64,000 nucleotides of DNA from Ulva prolifera (taxonomy: Eukaryota; Chlorophyta; Ulvophyceae; Ulvales; Ulvaceae): contig CM041199.1 of the NCBI GenBank assembly GCA_023078555.1, positions 558,001 to 622,000 on the forward strand. Reading direction: 5' to 3'. Position 1 is the first letter of the stretch, and each line of letters begins with the position of its first letter. Below are positions 24,300-55,081 of the stretch, piece after piece. A program made the position numbers and the translations under genes. Under the pieces are notes generated by a model. The model was not told where the DNA came from and did no database searches. It was given only the letters and a program-made list of their open reading frames with translations.

Positions 24300-26645
24300 A
24301 TGGGAGCAGCAGAGTCCATTCCGAGGCCTGCCGCGCAGAATCCAGCTGAGCGCCGTACTATGGCCATGACTCACTCTGTGAAGGTGAGCCTTTGAAAATG
24401 CCGGCGTGAAGGTGATTGCGAGATCATGTCCAACGTAACGCCCATGCGAGCTCGTAAGCTGGCGCAGATGCGGGCGTTTCCTCGCTCCAGACTACGGCCC
24501 GGGCCCTTGGTCACCAAGACTTGCGTAGCTCTGCATGCCTACGCTCTGGAGCCTGTCGTCTTCCACGGGTTGCACGCATATCCCCATGACGCCCTGCGTG
24601 CTGCACTGGAACGCTGACTGCAGATAGAGCTGGATCTGGATGTAAACCGCCTGATAACCATCGCAGAGGAGGCTGGTAAAGCGATTATGAAGGTCTATGA
24701 GGGGGACAACTGGGACGTGGACCATAAGGCTGATGACAGTCCACTGACACGAGCTGACAAGGAAGCCAACCAGATCATCTGCGATGCGCTGATGGAATGG
24801 ACTCCCCATATCCCCATCATCTCAGAGGAAAACAAGCTCGTCCCGTACTCCATCCGCAAGGTCTGCCCGACTTCTCTCTCTCCTCAACACTGCATGTGAA
24901 GCCGCTTCGAGCACTGGAGGTCCGTGATTTGTGCATGAGCTATAGCTTTCATCGTGATTGTCTCACAACCACCTCAATATAATTCTGCGTGTCAGACCGT
25001 GCTGTCTGGTCACCATGACCATGTCACACTGCTGCATTCAGGGCAGCTTCTGTGCCTCAGCACATCTCAGCACTCTGGTCAGGTAGCACCCCTAGCCCAC
25101 CCCGAGCCATCCCTGAGCACCGAATGCTCTCAGTCGTCAAACCCAACAACGGCTCGACCATCCTGGTGCAGAAAGACGCACTCTCCGTTGCCGTCGAGGC
25201 ACATTGGCGCAAGCGTTTGATCCGTTGCCATGCCCTTCTCCCATCGTTCAGTGCATATGCATGGCCGCCTTGCTCCTGTACATCTGCAGCCTCTGTGCCA
25301 TGGCTGGGTGCCTCCTGTCAAAGGGTACATCATGCTGTCTGTCAATCGCTGGTGTCACAAAGATGAGTTTCCCAAGACGCTGCTTCCCCGACGTACCGTG
25401 TTACGGCACAACAGGCACGCGGTGCCCTCCTCTTGCCAGCACTGCCCTGCGGCTCCGTCTCGGTCCCTGACACGCGCTGCTGCGGCTGCAGAACTACGAG
25501 TTCTGCTGGATCGTGGACCCCCTCGACGGCACGAAGGAGTTCATCAAGCGCGTGCCGCACTTCACGGTGAACATCGCGCTCGTTCGTAAGAACGCGCCGG
25601 TGATGGGCGTCGTGTACACGCCCGCCGCCGACACCACCCACTTTGCGATCAAGGGCCGCGGCGCCTTTGTGCGGTGCGTTACCCCCCCCCCCCCCCCCCC
25701 AGCATGCATGCGCGGAGCCCTGCCTGCACCGCCCCTCCGGCCCGGCCGGGGCAGCCGATACGCACTCACCAGGCACACGGGCTGCCAGCTGCCGCCCTGT
25801 TGTCCTGCACGCGACCCCATGCTACGCACAGCATGCGGGCTGTGCATGGAGCAGGCGGCCAGCCCCCTCTGCCGCTGCTCGCCTGTGCGCTCGTGGCGTC
25901 TATGCGGCTGCCGACTGGCCTGAGGTGAGCGCAGGGGTGAGATGTGTGTGAGCATGCAGGACGCCGACAGGTGACGACCAGAAGGTGCGGTGCAAGAAGT
26001 ACGACCCGGCGGAGGACGGCATCACCGTCGTCGGCAGCGCCAGCCACATGAGCGCCCTCACCGAGCAGTTCCTCTCGCAGTACTCCAACCCCAGCCTCAC
26101 GCAGATCGGGTCCTCCCTCAAGTTCTTGCTGGTGCGTGCGACCTCTCAGCCACCACCACAGTGACCGTTCGTCTTCCGTTGCGGGTCATCTGTACCCCTG
26201 TAGCCACTGGACCAGCGCGGGGGAGGCGCTACCAGGCCCGCGTGGGGCAGCAGCGCGGATGTCAGTGTGGGGCGCGAGGGTGAGTGCGTGTGGAGTGCAG
26301 GTGGCGGAGGGGCTCGCGAGCTGCTACCCGCGCCTCGCGCCGACGTGCGAGTGGGACACGGCGGCGGCCCACATCATCGTCGAGGAGGCCGGGGGCTCCG
26401 TGATGCAGGCGGGCCGGTGCGACAACAAGGGCCAGGCGCTGGAGGACTGGAAGGAGGTGCTCCCGCAGGAGAAGGTGGTGGAGTACAACAAGGAGGACGT
26501 GCTCAATCCGTTCTTCGTCGTGTATGGCCGCCGCGGCGCCGACGAGCCTGCGGCGGTGCCAGCCGCCGACGCAGCGGCCGGGGCCGCGCCGCCGCCGGAG
26601 GCTGTGGCGGAGGACGCGGAGGACAAGCCACAGAACGGTGTATAG
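24300..26645 (+). CDS. cysQ: 3'(2'),5'-bisphosphate nucleotidase, CysQ type (inositol-monophosphatase superfamily)
   Basis: Five exons join in phase: 24300-24383, 24624-24860, 25492-25673, 25960-26131 and 26301-26645, giving about 339 residues. The enzyme removes the 3'-phosphate from adenosine 3',5'-bisphosphate (PAP), a by-product of sulfate assimilation and sulfotransferases, and depends on Mg2+. Family motifs are all present: KADDSPLTRADKEAN, IISEEN, WIVDPLDGTKEFI, QIGSSLKFLLVAEG and WDTAAAH. The DPLDGT and SEE residues are the metal ligands. The GSSLKF motif and the overall pattern match bacterial CysQ better than plant SAL1 as I remember them. Exon 1 encodes a short N-terminal extension, so a transit peptide is uncertain. 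The C-terminus carries an Ala/Pro-rich tail beyond the domain. Intron 3 begins with a 19-base poly-C run. The gene converges with SWR1. Confidence 0.92.
25682..25700 (+). repeat. poly-C tract (19 C) inside CysQ intron 3
   Basis: Nineteen C bases start eight bases after the 5' splice site (25674) of intron 3 and are followed directly by AG. A tract of this kind would normally be expected at the 3' end of an intron. The same placement recurs in other genes of the window. Confidence 0.95.
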
Positions 26646-27708: not shown

Positions 27709-30700
27709 TCAGGAGCCTCCTGGGGGACCTTGTGTCGGGCCGCCGTGCTGACCGCCGCTTGTGTTGGCCCCCTGCCCTGGAATCTGAAAGGTCCCCTGCG
27801 GCGCAAGCATAGCACTTGGTGGCTGCCCCAGTGGGGCGGGGGCCTGCATGCCATGCATGCCGAACGGCGGCACAGCACCCGGCAGCGCACTGGGGAGCTG
27901 CCGCCCCGGCATCCCTGGACCGCCCGGCTGCTGCTGCATCATGCCCGGCTGCTGCTGCATCATGCCGGGCTGCTGCTGCATCATATGCAGCATCGCCGCC
28001 GGGTGTGCAGCCGTTCCAGGTAGCGACATCGCCCCGAGCGCTTGCGCCGGCACATACGTCGGCGCGCCTCCTAGCGGCGCGAACCCCAACGGCGCAGGAG
28101 CTCCCGCAGCGCCGGCATGGCCCATGCGCAACGGCGCATGCACCATCGCGGACACCGGCACGCCGCCCCCGGCCGCGGGCCGTACGAGCGGCTGCGCAGC
28201 ATTCACCATTGGGTACGCAGGCCGCGCATGCTGTGCGTGCTGCGCCGGCGGCGCGGCAGCGGCCGCGCCGCGGGGTGCGCCGTGCGCTCCCCCCTGCTGC
28301 TGCATGAGCATCGAGAGCGCGTTATTCGAGTCCCCGGGGTTCTGCAGCGCAGCAGACAGCATGGACTGCACAGCCGGGGGCAGCGTCGCCATGACTGCCG
28401 CTGTCGGTGCAGGCGGCGTGGCGGCGTGAGCAGGCGCTGCGGCACTGACGGCGGGGGGACGCGCGGTGGGGACCGCAGGGGCTGCGTGCTGCGTGGCTCC
28501 CAGGGGGACGGCGGCAGTGACCTGTGGCACGATGGGGGCGCCCCTCTGCAGTGCAGCTGCCGGCACGGCCGCTGATGCGTTCGTCGCTCCTGCACATCAG
28601 GTCGTGGGTGGCGCAGGTGCAGTGTACTGTCACGCCCCACATGCAGTACCAGAGAGACACGCAGGTGGATCGAGAGCGTCAAGGCATTCGATCTGCAGTG
28701 TATCGCAGTGGGCTTCAGTATGAAGCAACCAGATGGCATTGCACACGCTAGGAGTTCATACCACATCGCAAGCAGGCAGAAACCATCCACCCTGGCACAG
28801 TGCAACCGGCCGCAACAGTATACAGCATGTTTGGCTGCTGTCAAAGCACACCTGCGCCGCCAGAATTATCCATGCTTTGCAGACCATTCGCGAGCTCCGC
28901 AGGCGCCGCCAGGCCCGCACTACCATGCATGTCGCCCGCACCCATAACCGCGCTCACCGCACCGGGCGCCATGCCTGTGGCTGCTGCCGGCGCCGCGGAC
29001 TCCGGTGCGGCCGCCGCCGCCTGCTGCTGCTGCGGCGCCGCAGCACACGGGTCGTGTTGCACCACTGGCGGCGGCAGGCCGGCGATGCGTGCGTCAACGC
29101 AGCGCAACACCGCATCAAACGAGTCCGCGGTGACCGCCCGGAGGACCTGCCGGGAAGCTGACGCAGCCGTGACGCCAGGTTGCGCGGCCGCCTGCTCCAA
29201 GACTGCGGACACGGCGGAGCTGAGCCCTGCCCGCACGCCTGCGGGGGTCGCACCGAAGCGCCGGGGGTACAGCGTGTCTGCGGCCGACCCCGCGAGCGCG
29301 GTGGCCGTCTTGTCGCTGGAGAGCCGCGCCGCGATGCGTACTGCAAGCGCGGCTGTGAACATGTCCGCGCGCCCCTCGCCTTCGCCGCTGCTGACCCCGA
29401 CCAGCACGGCGGCCCGCTGCTGCGCGGCGCTGGCGTCGCGCACCCGCCCCGTGCCAGCCTTAGCCTCCACTGTCTCAGCAAGCGCCTCCCACGGCTTCAC
29501 CTTGGTAAGGTTTGCGTCCCCGCCGCGCAGCGCGGCAGCTGCAGCAGCGCACAGCGCGCGGTCCTCCACCGGCGTGAACGTCAGCGGTGGCTGCGCTGCG
29601 GCCGGCGGCAGCGCAGCAGCCGCCGGCGAGGCCGCGGCAGCGGCCGCCGGTGCGGCGGCCACGCCGCCCGCTGCGGCGACAGCCGCCTGCGCGGAGAGCT
29701 GTGCCTTACGGTCGGCGGCGGCCGCCGCCTCCGCCTGCATGCGCGCAGCGTCCGCCGCGGCGGCTTGCGTCGCCGCCCACTCGCGCGCGCGCCGCTCCTC
29801 CTCGGCCTGCCACGCCTCGAACTTCCGCTTGCGGTGCTCCTCCCGCCGCAGGTACTTCCAGAACAGCCGCCGCGCCTCGAGGGGGTCCCAGTCGGTGACG
29901 AGGTTCTCGTCAGGGTTATCATCGTCGACGTCCGCCGGCGGCGCAGCTGCCGCGGCGAGCATGGGGTTGTCAGGGTTGTCGAGCGCCGTGCGGCTGCCGC
30001 CCTGCTCGTTTGCGACCGCCTTGCCCTGCTCTAAAAGGGCATCAGCCATCGCCTCATAGTCCACATTGCCCATCTCCGCCTCACACACCTGCACCACTCC
30101 TTTCCCACTGAGTCCATGCATGCCGAAGCCCCCAGCCACACGCCTGCAGCTCCGCACCACCCGCGCCTGTGTGAAGAGCTTCAACTCAATCGTTGGTGGC
30201 ACCGTCTGCCCACAATGATGTAGCAGACCTGTTCAACGCGTTTCTGGATTACGCTCATGCACTTGCATCCATGTGCTCAGGGCCGCACCCGCACGGCGTA
30301 CTTCTCGATCGGCCGCAGCATCGTCTGCGCCTCGGCCGCGGTTGCCTTCAGCACCGCCGGCCCTGCTTCCAAGGCCTTCCCAGCCCCATCCCCCGCGCCT
30401 CCTGCCCCCTCCCCGGCGGCCTTTGCGGCTCCACCATCTGCCGCGTTCTCGTCAAAGTCCGCCGCGTTCTCCTGCGCCACCTCCGCCTCCGCCTCTGCCG
30501 CCGCAGCCACGTCCGCCGCGTCCTCCGCCTGCGCGATCGCCTTCTTATACTCCTCATCCGAAATCTTGTCGATTTTCTGGGGCACGACTCCCAACAAATC
30601 GTCCCCGAGCAGGTCCCGGACGTCGGATGTCGCGAGGCTCTTGGTGCCAGAGGCGGCCGCGGAGGTGGCGGCGGCGCTGCCGGAGAAGCCGCCGCTCTGG

Positions 30701-33700
30701 ATCGCGAGGTGGTCGAGGTGGCGCTTCTGGTTGCTCTTGCGCAGGATGTTCTCCTCGATCGTGTGCTCGGAGATGAGGCGGTAGATGTGCACCTCGCGGG
30801 TTTGCCCGATGCGGTGACATCGATCCTGCACCACACCGCTGACCTGCTCTACCCGTTTGCTGCAGACTAATGGACCTGAACCTTTTGTGACACCCGAGGG
30901 GGGCACGAGTGACCGGGCGCTCTGACGGGAGTTGATCTTTGTTGTGTGCATGAGTCGGACGCTTCAAATAGAATGCTGTCGGCTGCGTTGCGTAGTGGTA
31001 TGCTTTGGTCTGCTTCGCTGCTATGCAATGGCCCAGGCTCATGTAATGTGTGAGGGTATCGGTGACCACGCCTCTGCCAAAACTGAATCTGTGCTGTGCG
31101 GCGGGGGGGCAAGAGTGCGCCCCTGATTTGAGACTGCGTTCTCGCAGCACTCCACCGACCTCTTGGGTCTTGGGCCTACATTCTGGCGATCCGCCACGAG
31201 GCCTCGTTCGAGATCGGGCTGCTGTCGCAGCAAGGAACAGGAACAGACCGACAGGGTGTCCAACGCAGGCACTCACTGCATGCATGCAACTCCACAACAC
31301 CCGGCCCCCTCACCCACAACACCCGCCCAAGCTCTGCTGCACCCCACAACCAACAAACCAAATGCATGTGGGGCTTGCAGGGTCGTTGCTGCCAAGCTGT
31401 CGCAGCAAACCAGAGACGCAACCCTACAGAACCGCCAGCACAGCGGGCACAGCACAGCGGGCACAGCACGCACCTGTGCCTGCTGGTCCATTGCCGGGTT
31501 CCAGTCGGAGTCGTAGAAGATGACGCAGTTGGCGCCGGTGAGGTTGATGCCGACGCCCCCCGAGCGCGTCGAGAGGATGAAGGCGGTGTACCGGGGGTCG
31601 CTGTTGAAGCGCGTCATGAGGTCCTGCCGCTGCTGCGGCTTTGTGCTGCCGTCGAGGCGCATGTACGTCACGGAGTGGAGGTTGAGGAAGGCCTCGAGGA
31701 CGTCGAGCATCTTGGACATCTGCGTGAAGATGAGGCACCGGCTGCCGTCGGCCTTGAGGCGCCCGAGCAGCACCGCGAGCTGCTGCAGCTTTCCTGCACA
31801 CTGTTCCGCATGCATGTAGGTAATGCATGCGTGCATGTAAGGAGGTGCACGACGGGGTCGCGGCGCGGGGATGTAAGTACGGCAGAACCGCGGAGTCGTG
31901 GGGTGAGACGCGCTTGTGCATCATATGTTTGGTGCCGGTGGTGGCAACCTCCTTCAGTGACGGGAGTAATGATGGTGTTGGAGGGCGGCACTGGCAGCTG
32001 TGCTTGCTGGCGTCGGCTGATCGGAGGGTGCTGCGGGGTCGAGTGTGGTGCTGAGGTGGGGGTGCGCACCACAGTCAAACTGGATGAGGCGGCGGTCTGG
32101 GAAGTACAGCTTCTGCCTGATGATGGCAGCGTGGAATGGCGCAGACAGGCGACGTGCCTGCTGCAGCACGCCCGCCGCCGCGGCGGCTGCGGTCAGCGCC
32201 ATCGCGGCCGTCGGCCGCGACACCTCGACCGGTCGCGCCCGCACCGCCGGCACCACGCACGTGAACGCCCGCACCACGCCATCCACAGACACCAGCCGCT
32301 GCGCCGCCGTCAGCACCGCCGCAGCGAGCGCGCCCGCCGCAGTGCTGCCCGGCAGGTGCGCGTCCCGCGCCCGCACCTCGACGTGCACTGCGCAGCGCGC
32401 GTCCACGCCGACCAGCGGCCGCCCATGCGCGCATCGCAACGCGCTGATGCACGAGTTGCGCGCCGCGGCGGAGGCCGCCGCCGCGACACGGCGTGCCGCA
32501 TCCGTGGCGAGCGCCTCGCGCAGCGCTGTGACCGTTACCTCGGAGATGCCGGCGGCAGCGGCGGCGGCTGCCGCCGCGGCCGCCAGCCGCGCCTCCGCGG
32601 CGCCGGCCGCCGCCGCCGGCTCCAGCCGCGGCGCGGCCAGCGCCGCAGCACGGCCCTCGGCATACCGCCCGCGGCTCTCGAGCCACGCCGGCATCAGCCC
32701 CGCAGCGGCCCACCCCTCCCCCCGCCCACCCCACTCCCCCGTCGCCCCCGCGACCAGCCGCGGCACGCCGAGCCACAGCGGCGGCATGTCGTACGCAGAG
32801 ATGATCGGGCGGCCCTCGAAGAGGTCCGGGTGGTTGCAGACCTTGCGCAGCTGCATGAGGACGTTCATGATGGCGATGAAGCTGCCGGACGACATCGAGT
32901 CGCGGGTGGAGCGGGCCCCGAGGAAGTCATCGTAAAGGGTGCGCTGGCGCCGCGACAGGCGGCACATGATGACGTGCTCATGCTTCTGGGGCAGCTGCTT
33001 CTCCACCTCCTGCACACGCACACCCGCCGTGTGGTCCGCCTGCTGCATGCATGCATGCCTGTGCTTGTGCTGAAACTGGGATCATGCTCAGCAGAAGCCA
33101 CCAAGCAAACGTAGCCGCATGCATTCCGATATAATGCAGAAGTAGCGATACAACTGGAGGCGGCAGCACATGCAAGAGAGATGTGGGACCGTTTATCACG
33201 CCGGCCGCCAGAAGAGACGCGCCGACTAGCCAGAGCGGCTTACGACCTGGCCCATGCCCCGCCACTTCAGCAGCACCACCGCAGCACAAGCGCGCTGCAG
33301 CGGCCGCACAGAAGCTGAAGCACGGCTGTAGACTGAATAGAGTGTGCACGGCAGTGTCAGTTCGGCGCGCGCGATCACACAGAACCATTCCGAATATCTA
33401 GGTCTAATTTCTGGATGTCAGGCCCCCGAAAATGCTGCCAGACGACCCGGCCCGAGAGCGCAGGGGAGGCCGGCGGCGCACCTGCTTCATGCGGCGCAGC
33501 ACGAAGGGGCGCAGCACAGCATGCAGGCGGCCGACGAGCGCCGAGTTGACTGCGGACGCGCCCTCGACCATGCCCGTCAGGGGGTTGCTGAACCAGTCCT
33601 GGAAGGCGGCGTGGGAGTGGAAGATGTGGGGCATGAGGAAGTGCATCAGCGACCACAGCTCCATGAGGTCGTTCTGCAGCGGCGTGCCTGCACCACACAT

Positions 33701-36700
33701 CGGCAATCGAACGAGGACATTTGATCTGGTGTGACTGCGAAGAACTGCCCCTTCGCTGCCAGCAGCAGCTGCAGCTGACGTTGATCGTTTGTGAAACACA
33801 TAACAATGGTCCAAGGAACAAGAGCAAGTAGAGTAGGCTGCCTGTACGAGCGTTGTCCTGTACAGGATCTGGACGACTCCCGACGGCCGGGAACACACGC
33901 AGCAGCTTTGCTATTGTGCTTCTGCATATGTGCAGGGGCCATTGCGCGGCAGAACCCGGGGCAGGGATCAAAGAACATAAATCTGACAGTGCCAGCACTG
34001 AAAGCCAGCCAAACGCATGGGGCGCATGGGCGCATGGGAGGGGGGGGGGGGCACCGGTGATGAGGAGGCGGTGGCGCGCCGAGAAGTTGAGCAGCGCCTG
34101 CCAGCGCTGGCTCTTCCAGTTCTTGATCATGTGGGCCTCGTCCAGGATCAGGTACTGCCACCGCCGCCGCCTCAGGATCTTCACATCCTGCACCCCCCCA
34201 GCAGCGTGACATGCATGGAGCGATACCCTGTGCGTCCCGATGATGACACGCGTTGTGGCTACTGCATGGAAGAGCATCAAAGCAGACTTCACACGTTCAG
34301 GAACAGGAAAGCAAGAGACCAGCTGCGGGAGGGCACTCCTGTAACCTGATAACCACATGAGCTCGGTCCATTGCATGGCAGAGCGCCAGAACAGACTACA
34401 CGTCAGAAGTGAAACATCGAGATGGCAGATTTGCTTGACTGTACAGCCTCAGGGCACACCTGCAGCACGAGGTTGTAGCTGGTGATGCAGACGTGGAAGG
34501 CCCCCGGCTTGGACCAGCCCGTGCGCTTCGCCTTGCGCTCCCGCGGCGTGCCAAAGTACGTCAGGATCTTAAACGCCGGAGCAAACTTCTTGAACTCCAT
34601 CTCCCAGTTCAGCATCACCGACGTCGGCACGACGACGAGGTGGGGGCCCCACGACCCGCACTCCGCCGCGAGCCACGCCAGCAGCGAGATTGTCTGCAAT
34701 GCATGGCCTCCATGCGTGAACATTCTGTCTCGTGCCCGGCTGGGACGACCGCCGCCCGACTGGACACGCGCGAATGTTTCACAGGCACACCGCATCTCCT
34801 CGGCACAGCACACCGACGCGTGAATACATGCACCACACAGCCGCGGTGACGCGATGCGCGTGTAAGCACTGGAAAGGGGAACTGCCCACGTGTGCTGATG
34901 CGGCAGTAAAAGCACTGCTACTGCAAGGCGCATGCAGAGCCGACTGGGACACTCCGCTTCTGCAAAGAGGCGAGCTGCACCAGCTTCGGAAAATGCATGG
35001 CTGAGCGCCATACCACAATGCAGCAGAGGCGTTGTCCGTTGGACCAACGGACAACGCCTCCGATGCATGCATGTCCATGCACACGGCTAGCCGCCCACCT
35101 GTGTGACGGCTCACGACCTGGCATACAGCCACTGTTAAGGTCAGGCGCGTGTCCTAGGTGCACTGCACTGGCCCGTTCCAACCCTTCATTACCAGTTCCG
35201 CTGTTTGACCCGAAATTGCCTGGCAGTACTCTACGCAGCGACGTTCCTCCGAAAGGAACACGGAGTGGCGGGGGGGTCTCCGCACCTGCAGCGTTTTGCC
35301 GAGGCCCATCTCGTCCGCGAGGATGCCGTTGATGTTGCGCTTGCAGAGGTTCACGAGCCAGTCGAGGCCGGCGCGCTGGTAGCTGCGCATGTCGGCGCGC
35401 ACGAGGAACGGCACGCGCGTGAGCTCGCTGCCGTCGTCGCCGCCGCGGCCCATGATGCGGCTCTCGAGCGCCTCGTCGCCCGACATCGCCGCGTCGCAGT
35501 CGCTCCACGACTCGTCCGGCGCGGGCGTGCTGCCCCGGCTCGGCCCCTGCATGGACGTGATGCGTGTGGACCCTTGTTCACACCAGATGCATCTGTCCCC
35601 GGGGACAGCGCACTAGCGGTCGGCGAGGCGCTGAACCATGCACCTTGATGGTGAATACCCGTTGGGCAGCGTACACAGGTGGCGGACGTGCAGGACGTGG
35701 TGGGAACAGCCGCCCCTCCCGCCAGCGTCTGCCGCTGTCATCTTGAAAGTCTTGAAAGGCACCCCCGAGGAGCGTCTGAGACCCAGCAGCGTAGTTGGCA
35801 AGAGCTTCAGATGCCGGAAGCGCAGCCACTCACAGCGCCGCCTGATAACGACTCAACGATCACCATTTGGAGGCTCCATTCGAGCATGACGACAATCCCC
35901 TAGATATAATTGTCCCCCGGCGCGAATGCGGAATCCACAAGCATCAGCTCGAGCAGCCAAGCTGGGCGGAGACAGCCAAGTGCTCGGACCCAATTCGCGA
36001 ACACAGAATGGACACGCGCACCAGGCCATTCGTCGGCTTGAACTTGTCCTCTTTGCACACACGCCGCTGGACCTCCCGCTTGAGCTCCGCCTGCTCCTCC
36101 TGGATCTCCAGCAGATCCCGCACCTCCCGCTTCAGGAACCCCTTCGGCGCCTCCCCCCCCTCCACCCCGTCCTCCTGCTTCACCGCAGCCAGCAGCTCCT
36201 CGGGCCCGCTGTCCAGGGACGCAGACCGACGTGACCGCGTTCGCTTGCCCCCCTCTCCCGCCCTCGCCGGCGAGCTGTTCGGCAATGCTGCCGCGGCGGC
36301 CGTCCCTGCAGCGCTGTTCCCCCCTCTGCTGCCGGTGCTGCAGCGGGCGCGCTTGGCCAGGGGAGGGTCAGAGGCGTCGCGGGGGGGCGGGGGCGACGCC
36401 CCCGCTTCGGCAGCGGCGCTGTTGGGGGTCCCGGCGGCGGCAGCGCCGGCGGCGGTGGAGGAGGAGGAGGGGGGGACGCCAAGGAGCTGTTCGAGGGTGA
36501 TGCCCATGGAAGCGGCGACCTCCGCCAGTGACGCATCGCCATCCTTACCGAGCGTGTCGACCTCTGCTTGTGTGTCCTGCAGCGCGGCCGAGGCCATCAT
36601 TCGGGCCCCTCCGACTACTGCCGCCCAGTGCGGGCCACTTGTGGTGACAGGCGTGGCCATACCGTATGCTGCCGCAAACACGCAGCTGCCTGTTTGATCG

Positions 36701-39700
36701 CTGGAGGGCTCATGTGTGGTCAGCACCACACCCCTGCAGGGCTGTGCATGCATGCTGATGCAAACACTGCGTGCGGCACACGATCGATTAGCGGCAAAGC
36801 GAGCAGCAGTGGTCGGACGACCTCGTTGCCCCACAGCATCCAGTGCCGCGCACTATTTAAGGATATTATAAAGGTGTTATACACGATGTTGATGCCATGC
36901 ATGTGGACACAGCGCGCAGCATACCGCCCCCTCCGCACGCGCAAGCGCCTCCTCCTCCTCTAGAGTCTGCTCGTCATCCACAGCCTCCGCATTCTCCCAG
37001 TCCTCCTCATCCTCTTCTCCCCCCTCTCCACCAGCCGGCGCATCCCCGCCGCTCCGCCCCCCTCCAGCCTCCGCCGCCTCGTCCACGTCATCATCACTGT
37101 CAACATGCATATCCGGCAAGGCCGACGATGGGCCCGCCCCAGATGGGTCCCCCGCACCGCCCTGATCCGCCAGCTGTGCCGTCCACGCAGCGACGTGGTC
37201 GATCGCGCCGACCGGCGGCGCCGCAGCCACCGGCCGCCGCTGTCGCCGTGGCGGCGTCGCGGCCGCTCCGGCGCATGCGCTTGACGGCCCGGCACCCGCG
37301 GAAGCCGAGGTAACGCCTGCAGCTGCGATGGAGGAGGGGCCTGTGGCAGAGCTGGGGTGAGATGAGGTTCCGGCTTTGGCAGGTATACTGCCGGGGGTCC
37401 CGGCATCAGCGGCGGCGGCGGTGGAGGAGGGGGGGACGCCGAGGAGCTGCTCGAGGGTGATGCCCATGGAAGCAGCAACCTCCGCGAGTGACGCATCGCC
37501 TTCATTGCCCAGCTTGTCGATCTCCGCCTGTGTGTCCTGCACACCCACCGTCCACATTCACACAAGACCAAAACAACGCACACACACCCGACAGAACATG
37601 GCTTCGATCCAACGCACGAGCGCACGCAACGCCTCGCATCTCGCTCCGCCACCGCAAGAGGAGCTGCGGTGGGGCTGATAAACCAGTGGCTACAGGTGCA
37701 TTACCCGCAGCATGCATGTGGAGCAGATAAGCACACCGCTCCCTCTGCACGCGCTAGCGCCTCTTCAGCCTCGAGCGTCTCCTCATCATCCACCACCTCC
37801 GCATTTTCCCAGTCCTCCTCATCCTCCTCGTCGTCCTCTCCCCCCCCAGCCTCCACGTCGAGGCCCCCTGCGTCTGCCTGCCAGGACGGCCCAGCGCCGC
37901 TGCTCCCCCCGGCACCACCCGACGTCCCCGCACCAGTATCGCCCCGCCTCCGCACAGGCGCGGCACCAGCCGGCGCGTCGCCAGCCATCAAATCGCTTGC
38001 CCACGCCGCTGACCCGCCCCCACTGTCGCGGCGGCCATTGCTCGGGGCTACAGGTTCCTCCCCGTCGATGGGGCCGTCGTCATCGTCGCTGTCATGCATG
38101 AGCTCATCTTCGCCCCCCCCGGTACCACTGGGCCCGGCGCCGCTGGCCGCAACCGCGGCGGCGCCGGCGGCGGCTGGAGGAGCACCAGCGCCACCAGCGT
38201 ACTCTTGCAGACTGACACCGTAGGTGCGCTGCAGGAAGGCTGACAGGTCCTCGTCCACCTCAGCCGCCAGCTCAGCTGCAGCAACAGGTGCACAATCAGC
38301 CACATGCGCCAGTGAACACACTGCCATTGGCGCACAAACCAACAGGGGAAGCAAGGCCTCCTGCACACTCTACAGCAAGACAAGCCCTTTCCCCCCAGAC
38401 ACCGCTGGATTGCTGGAGTGATCACATACACTGTAACCTGTGCTCAGCACAGAGCTGCTCGTCTGCCTTCCACACGTCCGTAGGTACACTGCAGGTGCTC
38501 AGCACACCTGGCACTGCTGACGACGCCACAACCGCACAACTGTGCACACAGAAACAAAGCAGCAAGGAGTGGTGTATGTCTTGTGTGAGTCCAGCAGCGT
38601 CTTGATCTGTGGCTGCATGCATGCATGCACAGCGCCTGCCCAGGCCCAGAGCACGCCCTGCTGCCAGCATGACCGGACAACGGCAGCACAATATACAGCC
38701 TTCCGCAGCCAAGAGAGTCACACTACATCCAGCTGGCTCGCTCCTCACCGTAACAGCCGACGAGTTTTGAAATGATCCGAGATACAAATCCAAGACCCGG
38801 CTGTTATAACGCAGGATCATTCTTGACAGCAGATGTTATGCTGTAGCACTCCAAAGTATGGATATGTTCACATGATGTTGCAACTATGTCCGCGAAACAT
38901 TTGCTGGCAGGGTTACACATGCTGCACGTGACAGACGCGATCAGCTGTGCCAGGCAGTGGCCGCCGCACCTGCTTCCGCGTCACCGTTGCCATGCCCACC
39001 CTCGGCGCGTGCCAGCGCCTCTTCGGCCTCCAGCGTCTCCTCATCATCCACCTCCTCCACCCCGCCGCCGTCGCTCCCACTACCATCACCCACACACCAA
39101 TCACCGTCGCCATCAACCTCTCCAGCCGCCGCAGCGGAAGCCTCTGCGGCAGGCCCCCCCGCCGCGTCTGCCGGTCCGGCGTCGGGTGCGGCGACGTCGG
39201 CCACGGTGCTGGGGCTGTGGCCAGATGGGGCGCCAGTGCCGGCGTCTCCAGCGGGGGTCGGGGAGGAGCGCCCGGAGGGCGTCGGCGTCGCCTCCGGGCC
39301 ACCGATCCGCTGTACAAGCAGCTTCGAAAACCTGCATGCCACCGCGTGTGGTCTCGAGCATATGCATGCGTGCTGCTTCAGACATCAGCCTCTTGCGCAG
39401 CCTCTTCGACCTGAACAGTAGCTCTGATCATGTGGCTTCGGCAGTCGTGCCCGCGCACACCAGGCCATCCACATGAGGCATACCGCCCCTATCAACTTCA
39501 GAGCTCATCTCTTCGAATTATGTCAGTAAAAGATGGCTGTGAAGCCTGAACGGCTGAAGTCTGACTTCGGGTTTGTGACAACTGAGGCTCAGAACAAAAG
39601 GTGCCCATGGCGACTGCCGGAGTTTGAGCACCGGCATGGCTGCATGTAGTAGACTGCAGCTACCCCTGGAAGCGCAATCGTGCCCTGAATGAATGATGTG

Positions 39701-40990
39701 AAGCTGCGCACTTCTCGCTCTGCGCAACAAAGTCATTGAGCTCCTTGTCCAGCTTCCGCCGCTTGATGGCCTCGACCTGCTCCTGGACCGTGAAGTTGTG
39801 CACACTGCGCGCCTTTGACCAGAACTTCAGCACATCCCGGGCGATGCCGGACGCCCGCTTGACCAGCTTCTGCTGCTGCTCCTTTGCCCGCACCTGCATT
39901 CACAGGCCACGTTCAGCGAGCTCCAGGGCCCGCATGGATTCACGGCAGCTTGGCTGCGACACTGGGAATGTCAGCCCCGTGCTTGGTTGCTGCTGCTGTG
40001 CCAGGGGACATTCAGTTTATGCTTTTGCGGCGACGATTCAAAGTGTCTGTGCTATTACTGCTCATGCCTTTTTTGTTCAGTTATATCTGAGGTGCCTATG
40101 TGTGTTGGTGGCCTGCTTTGTAGGGAAGTTTATGGTGTCTTTAAGCAGCCTTGGGCAGGAGCGACCACAGGGGTCAGCAGCTAGCTGTGTCAGCGCAATT
40201 CAAAGGGCTGACAGCTGACATCCATGGACAGCGAGATTCGGTCCAAGGGCTCACCTCGCGCCGGCTGATCAGGTCCATCTTGCTCCGGGAGGCCTTGACC
40301 GCAGTCTGCTTGAGCTGTTTCAGCTTCGCCCTGCGCTCCTTTGAGAACTCATTCTGCATCCACTTCATCTCCTCCAGCAGGTAGTCCCAGTGGCACTTCT
40401 TTTTAGCTGGCTCCGGCTGCGGAGGCGGCACTCGCCCTGTGCGTTTGAACTTGGCCCGCGCAGCAGCCTGCATACAGCTATCCCTTGGTTCACACCGATG
40501 CAAACTTGTGCGGTCTTCGTTGCAAGAAGGTCAAGCAAAGCCTGTGCAATGAAGGAATCGTTGTATTCACGCATAAAAAGGACTACGAGGTGCGAAGGGA
40601 CTATGAATTGGACACAAAAGTGATGATGATCAGGCTCCAGTATGTTTTTGAAGGGTAGAACACACCACTGGTCAGCCCTAGACCGTCACAGGCTGCGATG
40701 GCATACGCTATACCAGATTATTATGCCCAGTTTGATCACAGCACGCATATTCAGGCTCGCAGGTGCAAGACCGGGTACAGAGATCAGCGCTCAAATAGTC
40801 CATGCTATGCTACGGACTCCATCAGGCACCAACGCAGCGATACCAGCCAGAGCACATCAAATTTGAGCCTCACCTTCAGAATTCCTTCCGCCTCAGGGCC
40901 GTAAGGCTCCATTTGATGGACGCCTGAATCCGCCAACACCTCAGCGAGCGCCAAGGAGGCCTCAGATTTGGATTTCGACTTTCGATCCAT
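27709..40990 (-). CDS. PIE1: SWR1/PIE1-type Snf2 chromatin-remodelling ATPase (H2A.Z deposition)
   Basis: Catalytic subunit of the nuclear SWR1 complex, which exchanges H2A for H2A.Z. Sixteen exons join in phase: 40990-40874, 40467-40255, 39893-39712, 39331-38970, 38275-37737, 37536-36925, 36576-36022, 35546-35286, 34693-34460, 34187-34055, 33687-33482, 33009-32070, 31793-31474, 30825-30289, 30205-28852 and 28589-27709; about 2,481 residues. Exons 2-3 encode the HSA domain ([31 protein letters not shown]). Exons 4-7 carry three acidic modules. Helicase motifs follow: ADEMGLGKT (Walker A), [20 protein letters not shown] (DEAH box), [87 protein letters not shown] and [18 protein letters not shown]. 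Exon 12 contains a long Ala-rich insertion splitting the two ATPase lobes, as in Swr1/INO80 proteins. The Pro/Gln/Met-rich tail contains MMQQQPG three times. A 72-base in-frame intron within exon 15 is possible. Confidence 0.95.
34040..34051 (-). repeat. poly-C tract next to the SWR1 intron 10 donor
   Basis: On the coding strand, intron 10 starts GTG at 34054 and continues directly into twelve C bases. It is the second example of a C-run immediately inside a 5' splice site. Confidence 0.9.
35026..35060. repeat. 17-bp inverted repeat with a 1-base loop in SWR1 intron 8
   Basis: GAGGCGTTGTCCGTTGG (35026-35042) and its exact reverse complement (35044-35060) are separated by a single A. The pair lies wholly inside the intron spanning 35285-34694. 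The transcript could form a long hairpin. Confidence 0.95.
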
Positions 40991-48591: not shown

Positions 48592-51500
48592 ATGGTATCA
48601 ACCACTGTGCATGTCAATGATGCAACTTGCATGCTGCTCAGAGTGCTGCTGGGGCCACCACCCGGCCACTTCCCCTCAGCGAGGGCCCCCACACCCGTCT
48701 CCGCCTGCAGTTTCCAGAAGTTCCCAGGGTCAGACTACCAGGCCTACATACACACCTCCAAGTACGCCAAGTGGCTCGACTCCGCAGGCAGGAGGGAATG
48801 CTGGAGCGAGACCGTCGAAAGGCGCGCCACCATGCCTCCCCATTTCGCGCAGCGCACACAGCGCACCAACTGCACCCCTCTGGCCACACCAAAGCTCCAC
48901 AAACCGTGCCATATCCCTCATGTACATGGGAATCGGCCCCACATGTGGTCTCGCCACGCGTCCCCTTGCGCACATCAGCCTGTCCGACACACCCCGATCC
49001 TCCCGGACGCCTCCACATTCCGTCATTGTGCCTCCCCCAGCCATTCTCACAGCCATACTCACAAGTGCAGAGCCGTCAGCTCGATGTGCAATGACACACA
49101 GCTCCCCACACTTCACCAGCAGACATGGCTTCGAGCTTGGCCCGCTGTGCGCCCCGCCCATGCCAGGCATGCCATCGCGGCGTGCCCCCCTGCAAGAGCA
49201 CCGGCCCGGGCCGTACTGCCAGCGGGCGCCCCTCCCCCCGCCCCCTGGAATCCCTTGCCCTCCGACATCCCAGCACGCCCCTGCTGCACACCCGCCAGCC
49301 ACGCACGCATGCAGCCCCGCGCACACGCATGCAATCCCACGCACACGCATGCAACCCCACGCACACGCATGCACCGCCACGCCGCCGCCTCCTGCGCCTG
49401 CGCTGGGTTGCACGCGCCCGGCCCCTCTGTGCTCGTGGCGCGCATATGCACGGTGCAGCAATCATGCACGAATTCACGCACATGTCTCCCTGCTTCCTAC
49501 GGGCGCTCGCTGGCGTGTATGCATGCGAGCCCGTCCCGCCGACGATTCCGCCGTGCGGTGGGTGTGCCGTTGAGTGTGGCACACTCCCGCTGTTGCTCAG
49601 AGCCACACCCCAACATTGGGCCGCGCGACCTGACTGACGCCACGGCCGCGGCCAGAGAGGCTCGGCAGCGCCACTCGCTGCATCCAGCCGCATGCGATCC
49701 CACAATCAGGTGGGGGAGGCGGTGCAGGTACTTTGACTTCATGGAGGAGCACCTGCGGAACCACCACGGCCACAGCGTGCCCGCCGAGCAGCGCGACCGC
49801 CTGTCACGCGCCGTGCTCTCCCTCGACGTCATGCCGTCCATGCGTGCGCTCATGACGGCCGGCCCCGCGCTGCGCAACAGCGGCATCGCCGCTTACAACT
49901 GCTCCTACCTCCCGATCGACGCCCCCGAGGCCTTCCATGAGATCCTCTACATCCTCATGCATGGCACCGGCGTCGGGTTCAGCGTCGAGCGGCAATTCAC
50001 CGGTGCGGCCCCTCCAACAAACACAACCGCCGTTGCTCGCTTGAGCTCTATCTCTCAATGGAGAGCCGTGGGCATGGCATGGCTATGTGCTGCTGTGTGG
50101 CAGGGCAGGCGAGGCCCATATGGGGATATGCATGGCAATATGCTCTGGCTCGAGTTTTCCGAGGGCTGTGGGCCAAAAACAGACGCGGTGGCGTGGGCAC
50201 TGTGGACGATGTGTGGCACTGTGGAGAACATACACGTGCGCGGAGTGATTGCGCAGATGAAGAGAACTTCTCTTGTGGAGGCCTGTGCTGTCCGCAGCCG
50301 GGCCTGTGACACGTTTCTACACGAGATTTCTGATGCGCAGCCGTCTCATCGGCCTCTCTGCTGTCTATGCATCGGCCGGCAGTCATTCCTCTAGTTCCGC
50401 TGCTCCACATCCGCAGACCCCTCAGTTCACACATCCCTGCATATTCTCCGTCGACACCCCTACACGGCAGCCTCGGCGCTGCGTGCCCATGCCGCTCCAG
50501 CCTGTGAACCGGCAAGACGCCCCTCATGCTGTGACACGAGCGCGCATCACAGCATGCACAGCACCCCATGCACCAGCGCGTGCAGGTGCGTGCGTATGCG
50601 TGACTCACCGGCCCGGCATGCTGCAGATCAGCTCCCGGTCATCGCCGCAGAGTTCACAGCGTCGCCGGAGGCGATATACGTCGCAGACTCGCGCGAAGGG
50701 TGGGCCTCCGCGCTACGCGCACTGGTAGCCGCGCTCTACCGGGGGGAGGTGCCGCAGCTGGACACACGGGATGTCAGGCCGGAGGGCAGCATCCTGCGCA
50801 CGTTCGGCGGCTTGGCGTCGGGGCCGCAGCCGCTGCATGAGCTGCATGAGTTCATGGTAGAACTGTTCCAGCGTGGCGCGGGCCGGCGGCTGACGCCACT
50901 GGAATGCCACGACCTGGTGTGCAAGATTGGGGAGATCGTGGTCGTGGGGGGTGTGCGGAGGTGTGTGGCCGGGGCGCATGGGCTCCATGCATGATGCTTG
51001 CTACTGTGCACCCCTCTTGTCTTGATTTCCACCCTTCGACCACGCATCGTGAGAGCCTGGATCGGCGTTGCGTGTCCGCCCGTCATCAGACGATCAGCGG
51101 CGCCATGCGTGCAGCCCATGCACTACATCGCTGCGCCGCCGTGCAGGTCCGCACTGATCTCGCTATCAGATCTCTCAGACGAGGGGATGCGCGACGCGAA
51201 GGCGGGCGCGTGGTGGGAGACGGCGCCGTGGCGCTACATGGCCAACATATCTGCGGTGTACGAGTCGCGGCCGTCGCGGCCAGAATTTGATGCGGAATGG
51301 GGGGCACTCGTCGCGAGCGGCAGCGGGGAGCGGGGGCTGTTCAGCCGCGTCGCAGCGGCGGCGCAGTGCCGCGCGAACCGCGGCCGGGCCGCCGACGGCA
51401 TCGCCTTCGGCACAAACCCCTGCTCCGAGATCATCCTGAGGCCGGGGCAGTTTTGCAACCTCTCAGAGGTGTGGCCTCAGCACTACGCGCCAATCATGGG

Positions 51501-53565
51501 GCCCATGTATTAGACGCCATCTTTCGCTCTTCCTTAGTGGCGTGCCTTCCCGTGGCTTGGCTGCTGCAGCCCCTGTTGTTGTAGCCCTGCATGCATGTCG
51601 GTAGACCGCCCTCTCGCCGTCCGTTCACACTTGGCTAAGAGGTCATGTTTGTCCGGCCCCGTGTCGCAGTGTGTGGCGCCATCCATCTCAGATCTAGTGG
51701 CCTGGATCACACCGTACATTCGCAGGCACGCAACCGCACAAACTCCATGCGAGCGGGCGTGGTGGTGCAGGTGGTGGTGCGGGCGGGGGACACGCTGGAG
51801 GACCTGCGGGGGAAGGTGCAGGCCGCGGCGGTCATCGGCACGTGGCAGAGCACGATGGCGCATTGGATCGAGGGCGGCCCGGGGCTGCGGCCGCACTGGC
51901 GCCGCAACACCCTCGAGGAGCGCCTCCTCGGCGTCTCCATGACCGGTGCGCCGCTACTCTAACAACAGTGGTTGGAGTTTGTGCGTTACTTTGTTTTGGG
52001 CCTTGGGACCGTGAAGTGGCTGTCGTCATGATTCAGTCCATCGTGCAGTCAGTCAAGTCTGGTCGAGCATCTGACCTCATCACTGGATGTCCTGGTCATG
52101 CGGTTAGCCTGCGTACACAAGGTTTTGTTACCCGAAACACATCACTTCCATGGCCTGCCTTGTCCGCCACTTACCATTGCTTGCTGCATGCCGTGTTGCG
52201 CAGCTGCAGACCGTTGTGTACATGTGCAGGGATCATGGACAACGCGATCACAAGCGGCCAGCATGGGGAGGCGGCGCTTGCAGAGTGTCTACAGGGGCTG
52301 CGGGAGTCCGCGGTTGCGGCAAACGCGAGGGAAGCGGCGGCTGTGGGTATCGCGCCGTCGGCCGCCGTGACGTGCGTCAAGCCGAGCGGCACCGTCAGCC
52401 AGCTCGTTGACTCGGCGTCCGGGATCCACGCGCGGCACTCGCGGTGGTACGTGCGGCGCGTGCGCGGCTCAAACACGGACCCGCTGACGCAGTTCATGGC
52501 CGCGCAGGGCGTGCCGCATGAGCCGTGCGCGTACAACAAGGGCTCCACGGTGCGCCCGCGCTCGTCCCGGCTGCTGGTCATGTCCATCTGCGGTGATCGG
52601 GTCGCAGTCTGCAAGCTCTTGACGTACGCATCGTCACGTGTCTGCTGTGTGTTGGGCCCCCCCGCTAGGCCTTCTCTCCACTAGGCTGCCAGCCCAAATG
52701 CATGAGAATCGTGTGCACGAGCTTGTACAGCCCCTCCGCTGGCCGCTCGAGAGGGTGCACACGATCCCTTCCAGGCACACGCGCATGGCGCCGTTCATCG
52801 CACCATCCATGGCACCACACATGCACATGCATGCTTGTAACACATGCACATGCATGCTGACCGCTGCGCACCGGTGCAGGTGTTCTCGTTCCCGATGGCG
52901 TCGCCACAGGGCGCGATCACGCGCGACGACACCGACGCCCTCTCCCACCTCAACCTCTGCCTTGCCTACCAGCGCCACTGGTGCGAGCACAAGACGTCAG
53001 TCACGATCTCCGTGAAAGAGGACGAGTGGGCGCCCGTCGGCGACTGGGTGTACGACCACTTTGACGACCTCGCAGGTGCGTGCTGCGCGTGCTGTGACGG
53101 TCACAGCACGCTCGCCGTCTTCCGTATCACGTGCTGCGCGTGCTGTGGCCAGGAGTGCCGGTCTGCCGCAAAACGTTGCGGCTGCAACCTGTCCCTGTGC
53201 GTCTGCTTGTGGCTGGAGTTGTGCCAGTCCTGCCATTCGGTCTGCATGTCAGCTCTGCTTGAGCGAGACGGAAGCATGTCCGTGACCGGCGTGCTGTGTG
53301 CTGTACAGGCGTGAGCTTCCTGCCGTACGACACGGGGACATACCAGCAGACGCCGTACGAGGCGATCGGGGAGGCGGAGTACGCGGCGCTGGCGGCGCGC
53401 ATGCCGGCGCACATAGACTGGGCGCGCTTCCAGGACGTCGAGCGGGGGTGGCGCGACCACAAGGTCGGGCGGGAGCTCGCCTGCAGCAGCGCACAGTGCG
53501 AGGCCGTCGGGGAGCCGCTCGCGCCGGGCGAAGACGGGGCGCCCGACGCGCGCGCGACCGCGTGA
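48592..53565 (+). CDS. rtpR: adenosylcobalamin-dependent ribonucleoside-triphosphate reductase (class II)
   Basis: Reduces ribonucleotides to deoxyribonucleotides using vitamin B12 as radical source. Eight exons join in phase: 48592-48821, 49728-50002, 50627-50960, 51147-51468, 51771-51945, 52230-52549, 52880-53075 and 53309-53565; about 702 residues against roughly 740 for bacterial RTPR. Conserved stretches include YNCSYLPI, HGTGVGFSVERQ, EGWASALRALV, GGLASGPQPL, GTNPCSEIIL, FCNLSEV, VKPSGTVSQLV and VSFLPYDTGTYQQ. The active-site cysteines fall at 49900, 51421 and 51454, with the glutamate in NPCSE. The C-terminal CSSAQC pair (53482 and 53497) matches the redox-active swinging arm. The start is uncertain: the ATG at 48592 gives a poorly conserved leader, and a TGCAG acceptor at 48710 could instead join an upstream exon. 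The first intron has a GC donor. Third codon positions are almost all G/C. Confidence 0.93.
49301..49380. repeat. four tandem 20-bp repeats in the first reductase intron
   Basis: Four consecutive 20-base units built on ACGCATGCA with a C-rich remainder (for example GCACACGCATGCAACCCCAC). The first unit is the most diverged. They lie within the intron 48822-49727. Confidence 0.85.
53087..53111. repeat. 12-bp inverted repeat with a 1-base loop in the last reductase intron
   Basis: GCGTGCTGTGAC (53087-53098) and its exact reverse complement (53100-53111) flank a single G, eleven bases after the 5' splice site at 53076. It resembles the hairpin in SWR1 intron 8 in design but not in sequence. Confidence 0.9.

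Positions 53566-54499: not shown

Positions 54500-54531
<32 letters not shown>
54500..54531 (+). repeat. poly-C tract (32 C)
   Basis: Thirty-two consecutive C bases, the longest homopolymer in the window. No gene model covers it. Confidence 0.95.
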
Positions 54532-54534
<3 letters not shown>

Positions 54535-55044
54535 CATGTCAAGGTTCCAAAGCGGCACCGCATGTGCCTGCAGATTGGCCTGCAGCTTTGCAGAGGAGCA
54601 GCAGCGTCGGCCGAAAGCCCAACTATTTGCACGTTTTTAGGGGACTTGATACGATAGGTAGATGTCGAGGCGGTCGTGCAGCCGTCCGCCCAACAGACTT
54701 TGTGCTTGACACACATCAAGTGCGCTCAGAGACGAACCAATCCCGCAGGTCCCACTCAGTACTATTTTTTGGAACATGACAAAGCAGCGCTCATTGTCCT
54801 ATTCATAGCGGGGTCGAATCATGCTAAGAACAAGCCTGATCAGTGAGTGGAGTGTCAAGATCGGAGCACAAATTGCCATAGCGGATTTTCATGGCAAGTT
54901 CTGGCCCAGAGCAGGCCTGCGTGTGTCAAACTTTTGTTTCTTGTGGCCATACATAAGGTGCGCCAGATGTCTATGCACACGCACGCGGCTGTGTGGTTCC
55001 CCTGGTTGTTGCTCGTGGTGCTACCTTCCTTTGTCATTGTAACA

Positions 55045-55045
<1 letters not shown>

Positions 55046-55081
<36 letters not shown>
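55046..55081. repeat. CA dinucleotide microsatellite
   Basis: About 18 uninterrupted AC units followed by a short CG run. Seen directly in the sequence. Confidence 0.95.

What the first reader, a model, noticed from the sequence alone, without database searches (positions are those of the whole stretch)
48592..53565. Intron-rich eukaryotic vitamin B12-dependent (class II) ribonucleotide reductase
Seen: eight in-phase exons encode a bacterial-type RTPR with every catalytic cysteine (YNCSY, NPCSE, FCNLSE) and the C-terminal CxxxxC pair. Known: most eukaryotes use class I enzymes; class II is reported from only a few, Euglena being the classic case. Inference: an acquired bacterial gene that has been in the nucleus long enough to gain at least seven introns and the host's GC-rich codon use. 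Its owner would need cobalamin for DNA synthesis unless a class I enzyme is also present.
Basis: partly seen in the sequence, partly recalled or inferred. Interest (0 to 1): 0.72.

Follow-up and report, generated by a model that had tools for sequence, protein, structure and literature searches.

The report
Phage-like vitamin-B12 DNA-precursor enzyme in alga
A green alga carries, in its own nuclear chromosomes and split by seven introns, a vitamin-B12-dependent enzyme for making DNA building blocks whose nearest relatives found here are in viruses of bacteria, although the alga also has the ordinary B12-free enzyme.

Summary
Eight exons at 48592-53565 (+) join, in frame at all seven junctions, into a 702-aa class II (adenosylcobalamin-dependent, RTPR-type) ribonucleotide reductase with every catalytic cysteine. 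It lies in an 11.2-Mb contig of an 88.9-Mb green-algal genome, beside other eukaryotic genes, and is single copy: a nuclear gene, not contamination. Both class I subunits, METE, METH and a cobalamin adenosyltransferase are present; methylmalonyl-CoA mutase was not found. So the owner should not depend on B12 for DNA, and RTPR is the only AdoCbl user found. The tree does not decide between a phage and a bacterial donor (AU p 0.41 and 0.09), and other eukaryotic class II sequences could not be compared. Class II enzymes in some green algae were reported in 2024 (PMC11439496). Verdict: a new member of a known kind, with an interesting, only partly resolved phage-type ancestry.

The parts
48592..48821 (+). 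Exon 1 (start uncertain; clear homology begins at 48721, residue FPGSDY); donor AAG|GCGCGC
48822..49727 (+). Intron 1, 906 bp, GC-AG, no in-frame stop, holds a 20-bp x 4 tandem repeat at 49304-49382
49728..50002 (+). Exon 2, holds catalytic C135 (codon 49900-49902, equivalent of L. leichmannii C119, number recalled)
50003..50626 (+). Intron 2, 624 bp, GT-AG
50627..50960 (+). Exon 3, holds the shortened class II insertion domain (PF21995, residues 186-241)
50961..51146 (+). Intron 3, 186 bp, GT-AG
51147..51468 (+). Exon 4, NPCSE (thiyl-radical C372, codon 51421-51423) and FCNLSE (C383, codon 51454-51456)
51469..51770 (+). Intron 4, 302 bp, GT-AG
51771..51945 (+). Exon 5
51946..52229 (+). Intron 5, 284 bp, GT-AG
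52230..52549 (+). Exon 6 (KPSGTVSQL motif)
52550..52879 (+). Intron 6, 330 bp, GT-AG
52880..53075 (+). Exon 7
53076..53308 (+). Intron 7, 233 bp, GT-AG, no in-frame stop
53309..53565 (+). Exon 8 with stop; C-terminal shuttle pair C676 (53482-53484) and C681 (53497-53499), then a tail of about 18 residues that is largely unaligned in the eight relatives

Best explanation
A probably functional, single-copy nuclear gene of a green alga for a monomer-type class II ribonucleotide reductase (RTPR). It was acquired horizontally from a carrier of the short-insert, phage-type RTPR: a bacteriophage, or a bacterium that held such a gene. It has since been taken over by the host: seven introns, GC-rich third positions, possibly an N-terminal targeting extension. 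Mechanism (inferred from conserved residues and the known chemistry of the L. leichmannii enzyme): AdoCbl homolysis makes a thiyl radical on C372; C135 and C383 reduce the ribonucleoside triphosphate; C676/C681 re-reduce them from thioredoxin or glutaredoxin. It needs no oxygen and no second subunit. The AdoCbl would be made by the genome's own adenosyltransferase from scavenged cobalamin. Because class I is also present, its likely role is a facultative second dNTP source (low oxygen, low iron, repair, or an organelle), not the essential one. Shown here: gene structure, residues, genome context, relatives. Inferred: splicing, activity, role, location.
For: Gene model and residues. Nuclear: 11.2-Mb contig; in the same window 3 of 10 scanned segments match Inositol_P, Helicase_C and HSA over their cut-offs, and GTGCG-type donors and TGCAG acceptors stand beside several such segments. 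Green alga: 38 exon-level chlorophyll a/b-binding matches; CP29 and LHCII match plant and green-algal chains in the PDB. Single copy: the eight matches in the genome all lie in C4:606721-611508. Relatives: 1183 phage records match at 1e-5, 192 at 1e-40, best Roseobacter phage CRP-403, 56.0% over 100%; viral contigs up to 57%; the 18 plasmid matches are 25.9-34.6%; a patescibacterial group 40-45%. Insert length: of 259 sequences, 148 could be measured and 144 of these have 25-27 residues between two landmarks, window 26. Co-factor supply: adenosyltransferase. Class I. METH, METE. No MCM match, 8 of 14 controls positive.
Against: No RNA evidence was available. Intron 1 is GC-AG and stop-free, so its removal rests on homology alone. 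The start codon is unsettled. The window scores 271.9 on the RTPR model TIGR02505, under its cut-off of 340, though five short-insert relatives also fail (286-315). 23 columns invariant in the eight relatives are changed, including the second N of an ANNS motif to I. The codon score is slightly negative, and only exons 2 and 7 stood out in the codon scan. Two light-harvesting genes show other donors, GTACGA and GTATGG, as read by eye. The short insert is not exclusive: two distant plasmid RTPRs (L094, L095) also measure 26. Placement inside the phage group is unresolved: AU p 0.41 for the window outside all phage-type rows, p 0.09 for window with Patescibacteria; its branch is long (1.25) and its composition deviates. 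An adenosyltransferase without MCM is not proof of RTPR use: liverworts keep CblB with uncertain function (PMC11439496, passages).
Confidence: 0.8

Rival explanations
1. Same identity, but the donor was a cellular bacterium (for example a Patescibacteria-like lineage or an unsampled bacterium) and phages took the gene from the same pool; 'phage-type' then describes the group, not the donor.
For: AU tests do not reject window plus Patescibacteria (p 0.091) nor the window outside all phage-type rows (p 0.41). Patescibacterial neighbours are mostly not phage genes (2 of 10 matched PHROGs). Two Solirubrobacter neighbours matched no PHROG (0 of 2). A 2024 survey inferred transfer from bacteria for Chlamydomonadales (PMC11439496, section 8 read).
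Against: Identity is up to 56-57% to phage and viral sequences against 40-45% to the patescibacterial group. In the 69-row tree the window lies in a 56-row group (SH-aLRT 99) that excludes that group, though a 44-row tree with another root does not. Many 'genome' rows of the 56 sit beside phage-type replication genes.
Confidence: 0.45
2. The gene belongs to the already described eukaryotic class II clan (Euglena, Dictyostelium, oomycetes, haptophytes) and was passed between eukaryotes.
For: Class II has moved between eukaryotes (PMC3019208, section 10 read); haptophytes and chlorarachniophytes share it with Euglena (PMC11439496, section 8 read). No such sequence could be compared here.
Against: That clan is described as sister to the L. 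leichmannii group (PMC3019208), whereas the window is 26-27% identical to lactobacillar RTPRs, 56% to phages, and has a shortened insert. The 2024 survey treats the Chlamydomonadales gene as an independent transfer.
Confidence: 0.12
3. Decaying or non-functional insert, or assembly artefact.
For: No transcript data; one non-canonical intron; 23 changes at otherwise invariant columns; slightly negative codon score.
Against: Eight exons free of stops and frameshifts, all catalytic cysteines kept, 191 of 214 invariant columns kept, GC3 0.87, eukaryotic neighbours.
Confidence: 0.06

Closest known systems
Class II RTPR of marine roseophages (CRP-403, CRP-5, cobavirus vB_LenP_ICBM2) and Streptomyces phage Wofford
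   Same: 54.8-56.0% identity over the whole 641-residue query; three of these four were run on TIGR02505 and fall under its cut-off as the window does; insert 25-26 residues in the same three
   Different: These phage genes are single open frames; the marine ones sit beside MazG and glutaredoxin, in CRP-403 also near a thymidylate synthase. The algal gene has seven introns and N- and C-terminal extensions, and no ThyX was found in the genome
Lactobacillus leichmannii RTPR (PDB 1L1L)
   Same: Reaction cysteines and monomer-type insertion domain recognisable
   Different: Much lower identity; the first third of the insertion-domain profile is unmatched in the window
Class II RNR of Chlamydomonadales, and possibly Ignatius, reported in PMC11439496 (2024)
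   Same: Green algae, B12-dependent RNR, inferred horizontal gain
Class II RNR of Euglena, Dictyostelium, Phytophthora and early-branching fungi
   Same: Eukaryotic, AdoCbl-dependent, monomer-type
   Different: Most are described as a clan next to the L. leichmannii group (PMC3019208); could not be aligned here

Membership tests
Class II ribonucleotide reductase (NrdJ), monomeric RTPR type | Thiyl-radical cysteine in NPCxE and redox pair equivalent to C119/C419 | tested here: met
   C372, C135, C383 align with the corresponding cysteines of 1L1L; residue numbers of 1L1L recalled
Class II ribonucleotide reductase (NrdJ), monomeric RTPR type | C-terminal CxxxxC shuttle pair | tested here: met
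   CSSAQC, C676/C681
Class II ribonucleotide reductase (NrdJ), monomeric RTPR type | Insertion domain that replaces the dimer interface | tested here: met
   PF21995 29.6 bits, cut-off 27, but only profile positions 38-99 of 107; three phage relatives are also partial (from 28 or 39), a lactobacillar control matches 1-107
NCBIfam TIGR02505 (RTPR equivalog) | Score at or above curated cut-off 340.05 | tested here: not met
   271.9 bits. Controls: five short-insert relatives 286-315, Sphingobium plasmid 222, Paenibacillus plasmid 396, lactobacillar plasmid 897. It works like RTPR but is not filed under this model
Pfam PF17975 (RNR_Alpha) | Score at or above curated cut-off 26.4 | tested here: not met
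   21.3 bits; three phage relatives 21.7-24.8, also under
Short-insert phage-type RTPR group | 25-27 residues between GxGVGFS and DSxEGW | tested here: met
   window 26; not exclusive, distant plasmid RTPRs L094 and L095 also 26
Short-insert phage-type RTPR group | Branches inside the phage sequences | tested here: inconclusive
Class II ribonucleotide reductase (NrdJ), monomeric RTPR type | AdoCbl-dependent reduction of NTPs | not testable with these tools
   needs enzyme assay
Eukaryotic class II clan (Euglena, Dictyostelium, oomycetes) | Common branch with those sequences | not testable with these tools
   no eukaryotic sequence collection on hand

The most novel reading that the evidence does not exclude
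A green alga captured a DNA-replication gene directly from a bacteriophage of its bacterial associates and made it a spliced nuclear gene: a phage enzyme working in a eukaryote, kept beside class I RNR and fed by the alga's own adenosyltransferase, possibly in an organelle.
Probability: 0.35. Interest if true: 0.65.

Novelty: new member of a known kind. Interest (0 to 1): 0.43.

Why it matters
It gives a full gene structure, in a multi-megabase contig, for a class II reductase in a green alga, where the survey section read here (PMC11439496) reports only presence. It ties the gene to a phage-dominated branch and so offers a concrete test of whether bacteriophages have donated working enzymes to eukaryotic nuclei. 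It also offers a reason for an alga without detectable methylmalonyl-CoA mutase to make adenosylcobalamin. The family cut-offs tested here (TIGR02505, PF17975) miss the window and the phage relatives that were run alike, so the spread of this type in algae may be under-counted.

Tried and rejected
Bacterial contamination: rejected (contig size, eukaryotic neighbours, introns). B12 dependence for DNA synthesis: rejected by gene content. A phage cassette brought along with the gene: ThyX searched and not found, 6 of 14 controls positive; no other phage gene was sought. Rubisco large subunit not found, so the plastid genome is probably not in the assembly. 18S rRNA search gave no usable answer twice. 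Telomere repeats: three motifs sought at 14 ends of 7 contigs, none seen. Owner identity beyond green alga, probably core chlorophyte, was not reached; Lhca3 did not resolve it. A guess at Ulva from genome size was tried in the literature and found no support. First genome-contig scan with the single protein found no relative; the second, with an alignment, did. tRNA and Rfam scans of the window: none. One script ended in an error after printing its first counts; the rest was rerun.
Full report
CHECK OF THE OBSERVATION. The exons were placed base by base: 48592-48821, 49728-50002, 50627-50960, 51147-51468, 51771-51945, 52230-52549, 52880-53075, 53309-53565, all on the + strand. Joined, they give 702 residues and a stop. 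Every junction is in phase and reproduces the peptide seen in relatives, for example ETVE-R-YFDFM, VVGGVR-R-SALISLSD, NLSE-VVVRAGDT, YNKGST-VFSFPMAS. Six introns are GT-AG; intron 1 is GC-AG (GCGCGC, one base from the GTGCGC used twice elsewhere in the gene). Reading through, five of seven introns meet stops in frame, introns 1 and 7 do not, so intron 1 rests on homology: the eight aligned phage/viral relatives show no insertion or deletion there. The start is open: residues 2-41 are unaligned in those relatives, exon 1 has the lowest GC3 of the eight (0.74 against 0.82-0.98), and a TGCAG acceptor-like site lies inside it. A few tblastn matches do reach back into this stretch (from residue 13).

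IDENTITY. NCBIfam names RTPR (TIGR02505, E 1e-80, 271.9 bits, under the cut-off of 340). Pfam: PF02867 and PF21995 over cut-off, PF17975 under it. In the PDB the only distinct sequence at E up to 0.001 is 1L1L, the L. leichmannii enzyme, E 6e-43. The cysteines of the reaction are all present. The low model score is shared: five short-insert relatives score 286-315 on the same model, while a lactobacillar control scores 897, and three phage relatives show a similarly clipped insertion domain.

WHOSE GENOME. The window is G000:C4:558001-622000 of an 88.9-Mb, 44-contig genome. It has 38 exon-level chlorophyll a/b-binding matches. For an LHCII sequence the top two PDB rows are multi-repeat LHCI chains of 9vfj, whose species I do not know; below them come green-algal and land-plant LHCII at nearly equal scores. 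CP29 scores highest (256-258 bits) with 9k7v, 9is4 and 6kac, ahead of 229 and less for the rest; 9k7v shares a chain named Bry-Lhcb2, and 6kac is, as I recall, Chlamydomonas. Lhca3 did not discriminate. I therefore call it a green alga, probably a core chlorophyte; class and species were not settled. In the same window 3 of 10 scanned segments match Pfam over cut-off: inositol monophosphatase family (25.5 kb), and Helicase_C and HSA of a chromatin-remodeller-like gene (31.5 and 40.3 kb, minus strand). GTGCG-type donors and TGCAG acceptors stand beside several of these segments; two light-harvesting genes show GTACGA and GTATGG instead, as read by eye, so donors vary in this genome. GC3 is 0.87, within the range of 11 other gene segments (0.47-0.91), but a codon score trained on them is slightly negative for the gene, and only exons 2 and 7 reached the threshold of the codon scan. 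The gene occurs once: eight matches, one per exon.

B12 CONTEXT. Class I large subunit on contig 6, small subunit on contig 4. METH, METE, and one adenosyltransferase (PF01923) full length in one open frame. Methylmalonyl-CoA mutase: no match, with 8 of 14 control genomes positive. In eukaryotes three B12 enzymes are known (PMC2667541, passages seen), so RTPR is the only AdoCbl client found here. The gene set predicts an alga that can use B12 but does not need it. Uptake proteins (CBA1) and CblC/CblD were not searched.

RELATIVES. Phages: 1183 of 50,697 records match at 1e-5, 192 at 1e-40; the best is Roseobacter phage CRP-403, 56.0% over the whole query. Viral contigs: 80 kept of 156, then 80 kept of 599, a capped list, up to 57%. 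Bacterial and archaeal genomes: 98 relatives, 80 kept. Many of those at 49-56% are short contigs of marine MAGs assigned to unrelated phyla. A patescibacterial group stands at 40-45%; two other contigs called patescibacterial, L125 (51%) and L127 (49%), branch elsewhere. I took the three largest neighbours of each of the 31 'genome' rows of the 56-row group (93 ORFs; one antisense ORF dropped, 92 scanned): 159 phage families matched, the commonest including DNA primase (8 of 92), DNA polymerase (7), primase/helicase (6), thymidylate synthase (5), Cas4 exonuclease (5). Only 25 of the 159 families were shown, and none of these is a capsid, tail or terminase family, so this points to phage-type replication modules without proving each contig a phage. 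For five long contigs 6 of 10 neighbours matched: three DNA polymerases, a resolvase, an RNA ligase/tail-fibre attachment protein, a glycosyltransferase; Solirubrobacter 0 of 2. Patescibacterial rows: 2 of 10 matched, one to tail-fibre families, so those look mainly cellular. Plasmids: 18 matches, 25.9-34.6%. Insert length: landmarks were found in 148 of 259 sequences; 144 measure 25-27 (window 26), four distant ones 44-59. Two distant plasmid RTPRs, L094 and L095, also measure 26, so the short insert is not exclusive to the phage-type group.

TREE. Of 259 loci, 258 gave a sequence (L310, a split phage gene, did not). 254 of at least 560 residues were thinned to 68 plus the window. Quick tree: the window is one of 56 rows with SH-aLRT 99 that leave out the six Patescibacteria; its exact place is open, and the tool warns of long outgroup branches. 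A careful tree of 44 rows (25 dropped by me: long or partial rows and thinning) roots differently, puts Patescibacteria among the phage rows, and has the window in a 35-row set at 94/98. AU tests: window with Patescibacteria p 0.091; the 37 phage-type rows as one side without the window p 0.41. The donor is therefore not settled. Phage is favoured by identity and by who owns the group, not by a supported nesting. No other eukaryotic class II sequence could be included, which is the main gap.

LITERATURE. PMC3019208 (section 10 and passages) puts most eukaryotic class II enzymes in a clan next to L. leichmannii. PMC8085122 (passages) adds fungi and oomycetes. PMC11439496 (passages and section 8) reports RNR-II in haptophytes, chlorarachniophytes and, by an independent transfer, Chlamydomonadales; its table lists Ignatius as possible. 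PMC6775973 (passages and section 29) says that earlier work placed phage class II RNRs next to chloroviruses and microalgae, so a phage-alga link in RNR trees has been noted before; that earlier paper (Sakowski 2014) is not held and was not read. PMC10547690 (passages) says cellular RTPRs emerge from viral clades and the reverse. PMC6557843 (passages) lists RNR II among algal B12 enzymes. None of ten searches listed, by title and start of abstract, a paper on a phage origin of a green-algal RNR; the library holds open-licence papers only.

VERDICT. Real, nuclear, probably functional, of a kind already reported in some green algae, with an unexpected and only partly resolved phage-type ancestry. 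On checking the calls I lowered the phage-capture reading from 0.38 to 0.35 and overall confidence from 0.82 to 0.80, because the short insert is not exclusive, the shown neighbour families hold no virion genes, and the codon score is slightly negative; for the last reason the odds of a decaying gene went from 0.05 to 0.06.

Noticed in passing
window 30409-40413 (-): Segments of a chromatin-remodeller-like gene, by motif SWR1/INO80-like (name recalled); HSA and Helicase_C over Pfam cut-off.
   Followed up: partly
window 24657-26546 (+): Gene in several coding segments of the inositol monophosphatase family, by motif a CysQ/SAL1-type nucleotidase (name recalled); one of the two segments scanned matched Pfam.
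   Followed up: partly
L199 (G000:C3:10565420-10565938): The cobalamin adenosyltransferase matches full length in one open frame and has the lowest GC3 (0.47) of the 11 gene segments compared; it might be a separate horizontal gain.
   Followed up: no
L310 (Rhizobium phage RHph_N3_13): A phage RNR of this group is annotated as two parts with another gene between them. Left as it is.
   Followed up: no
L309 and L095: Class II RNRs annotated as 'recombinase' in Vibrio phage VPs20 and a Variovorax plasmid, possibly misnamed.
   Followed up: no
L105, L126, L178: Contigs assigned to archaea carry RNRs that branch among phage sequences; perhaps phage contigs in those assemblies.
   Followed up: partly
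window 54500-54535 and 55042-55081: A run of 36 C and an (AC)20 repeat downstream of the gene.
   Followed up: no
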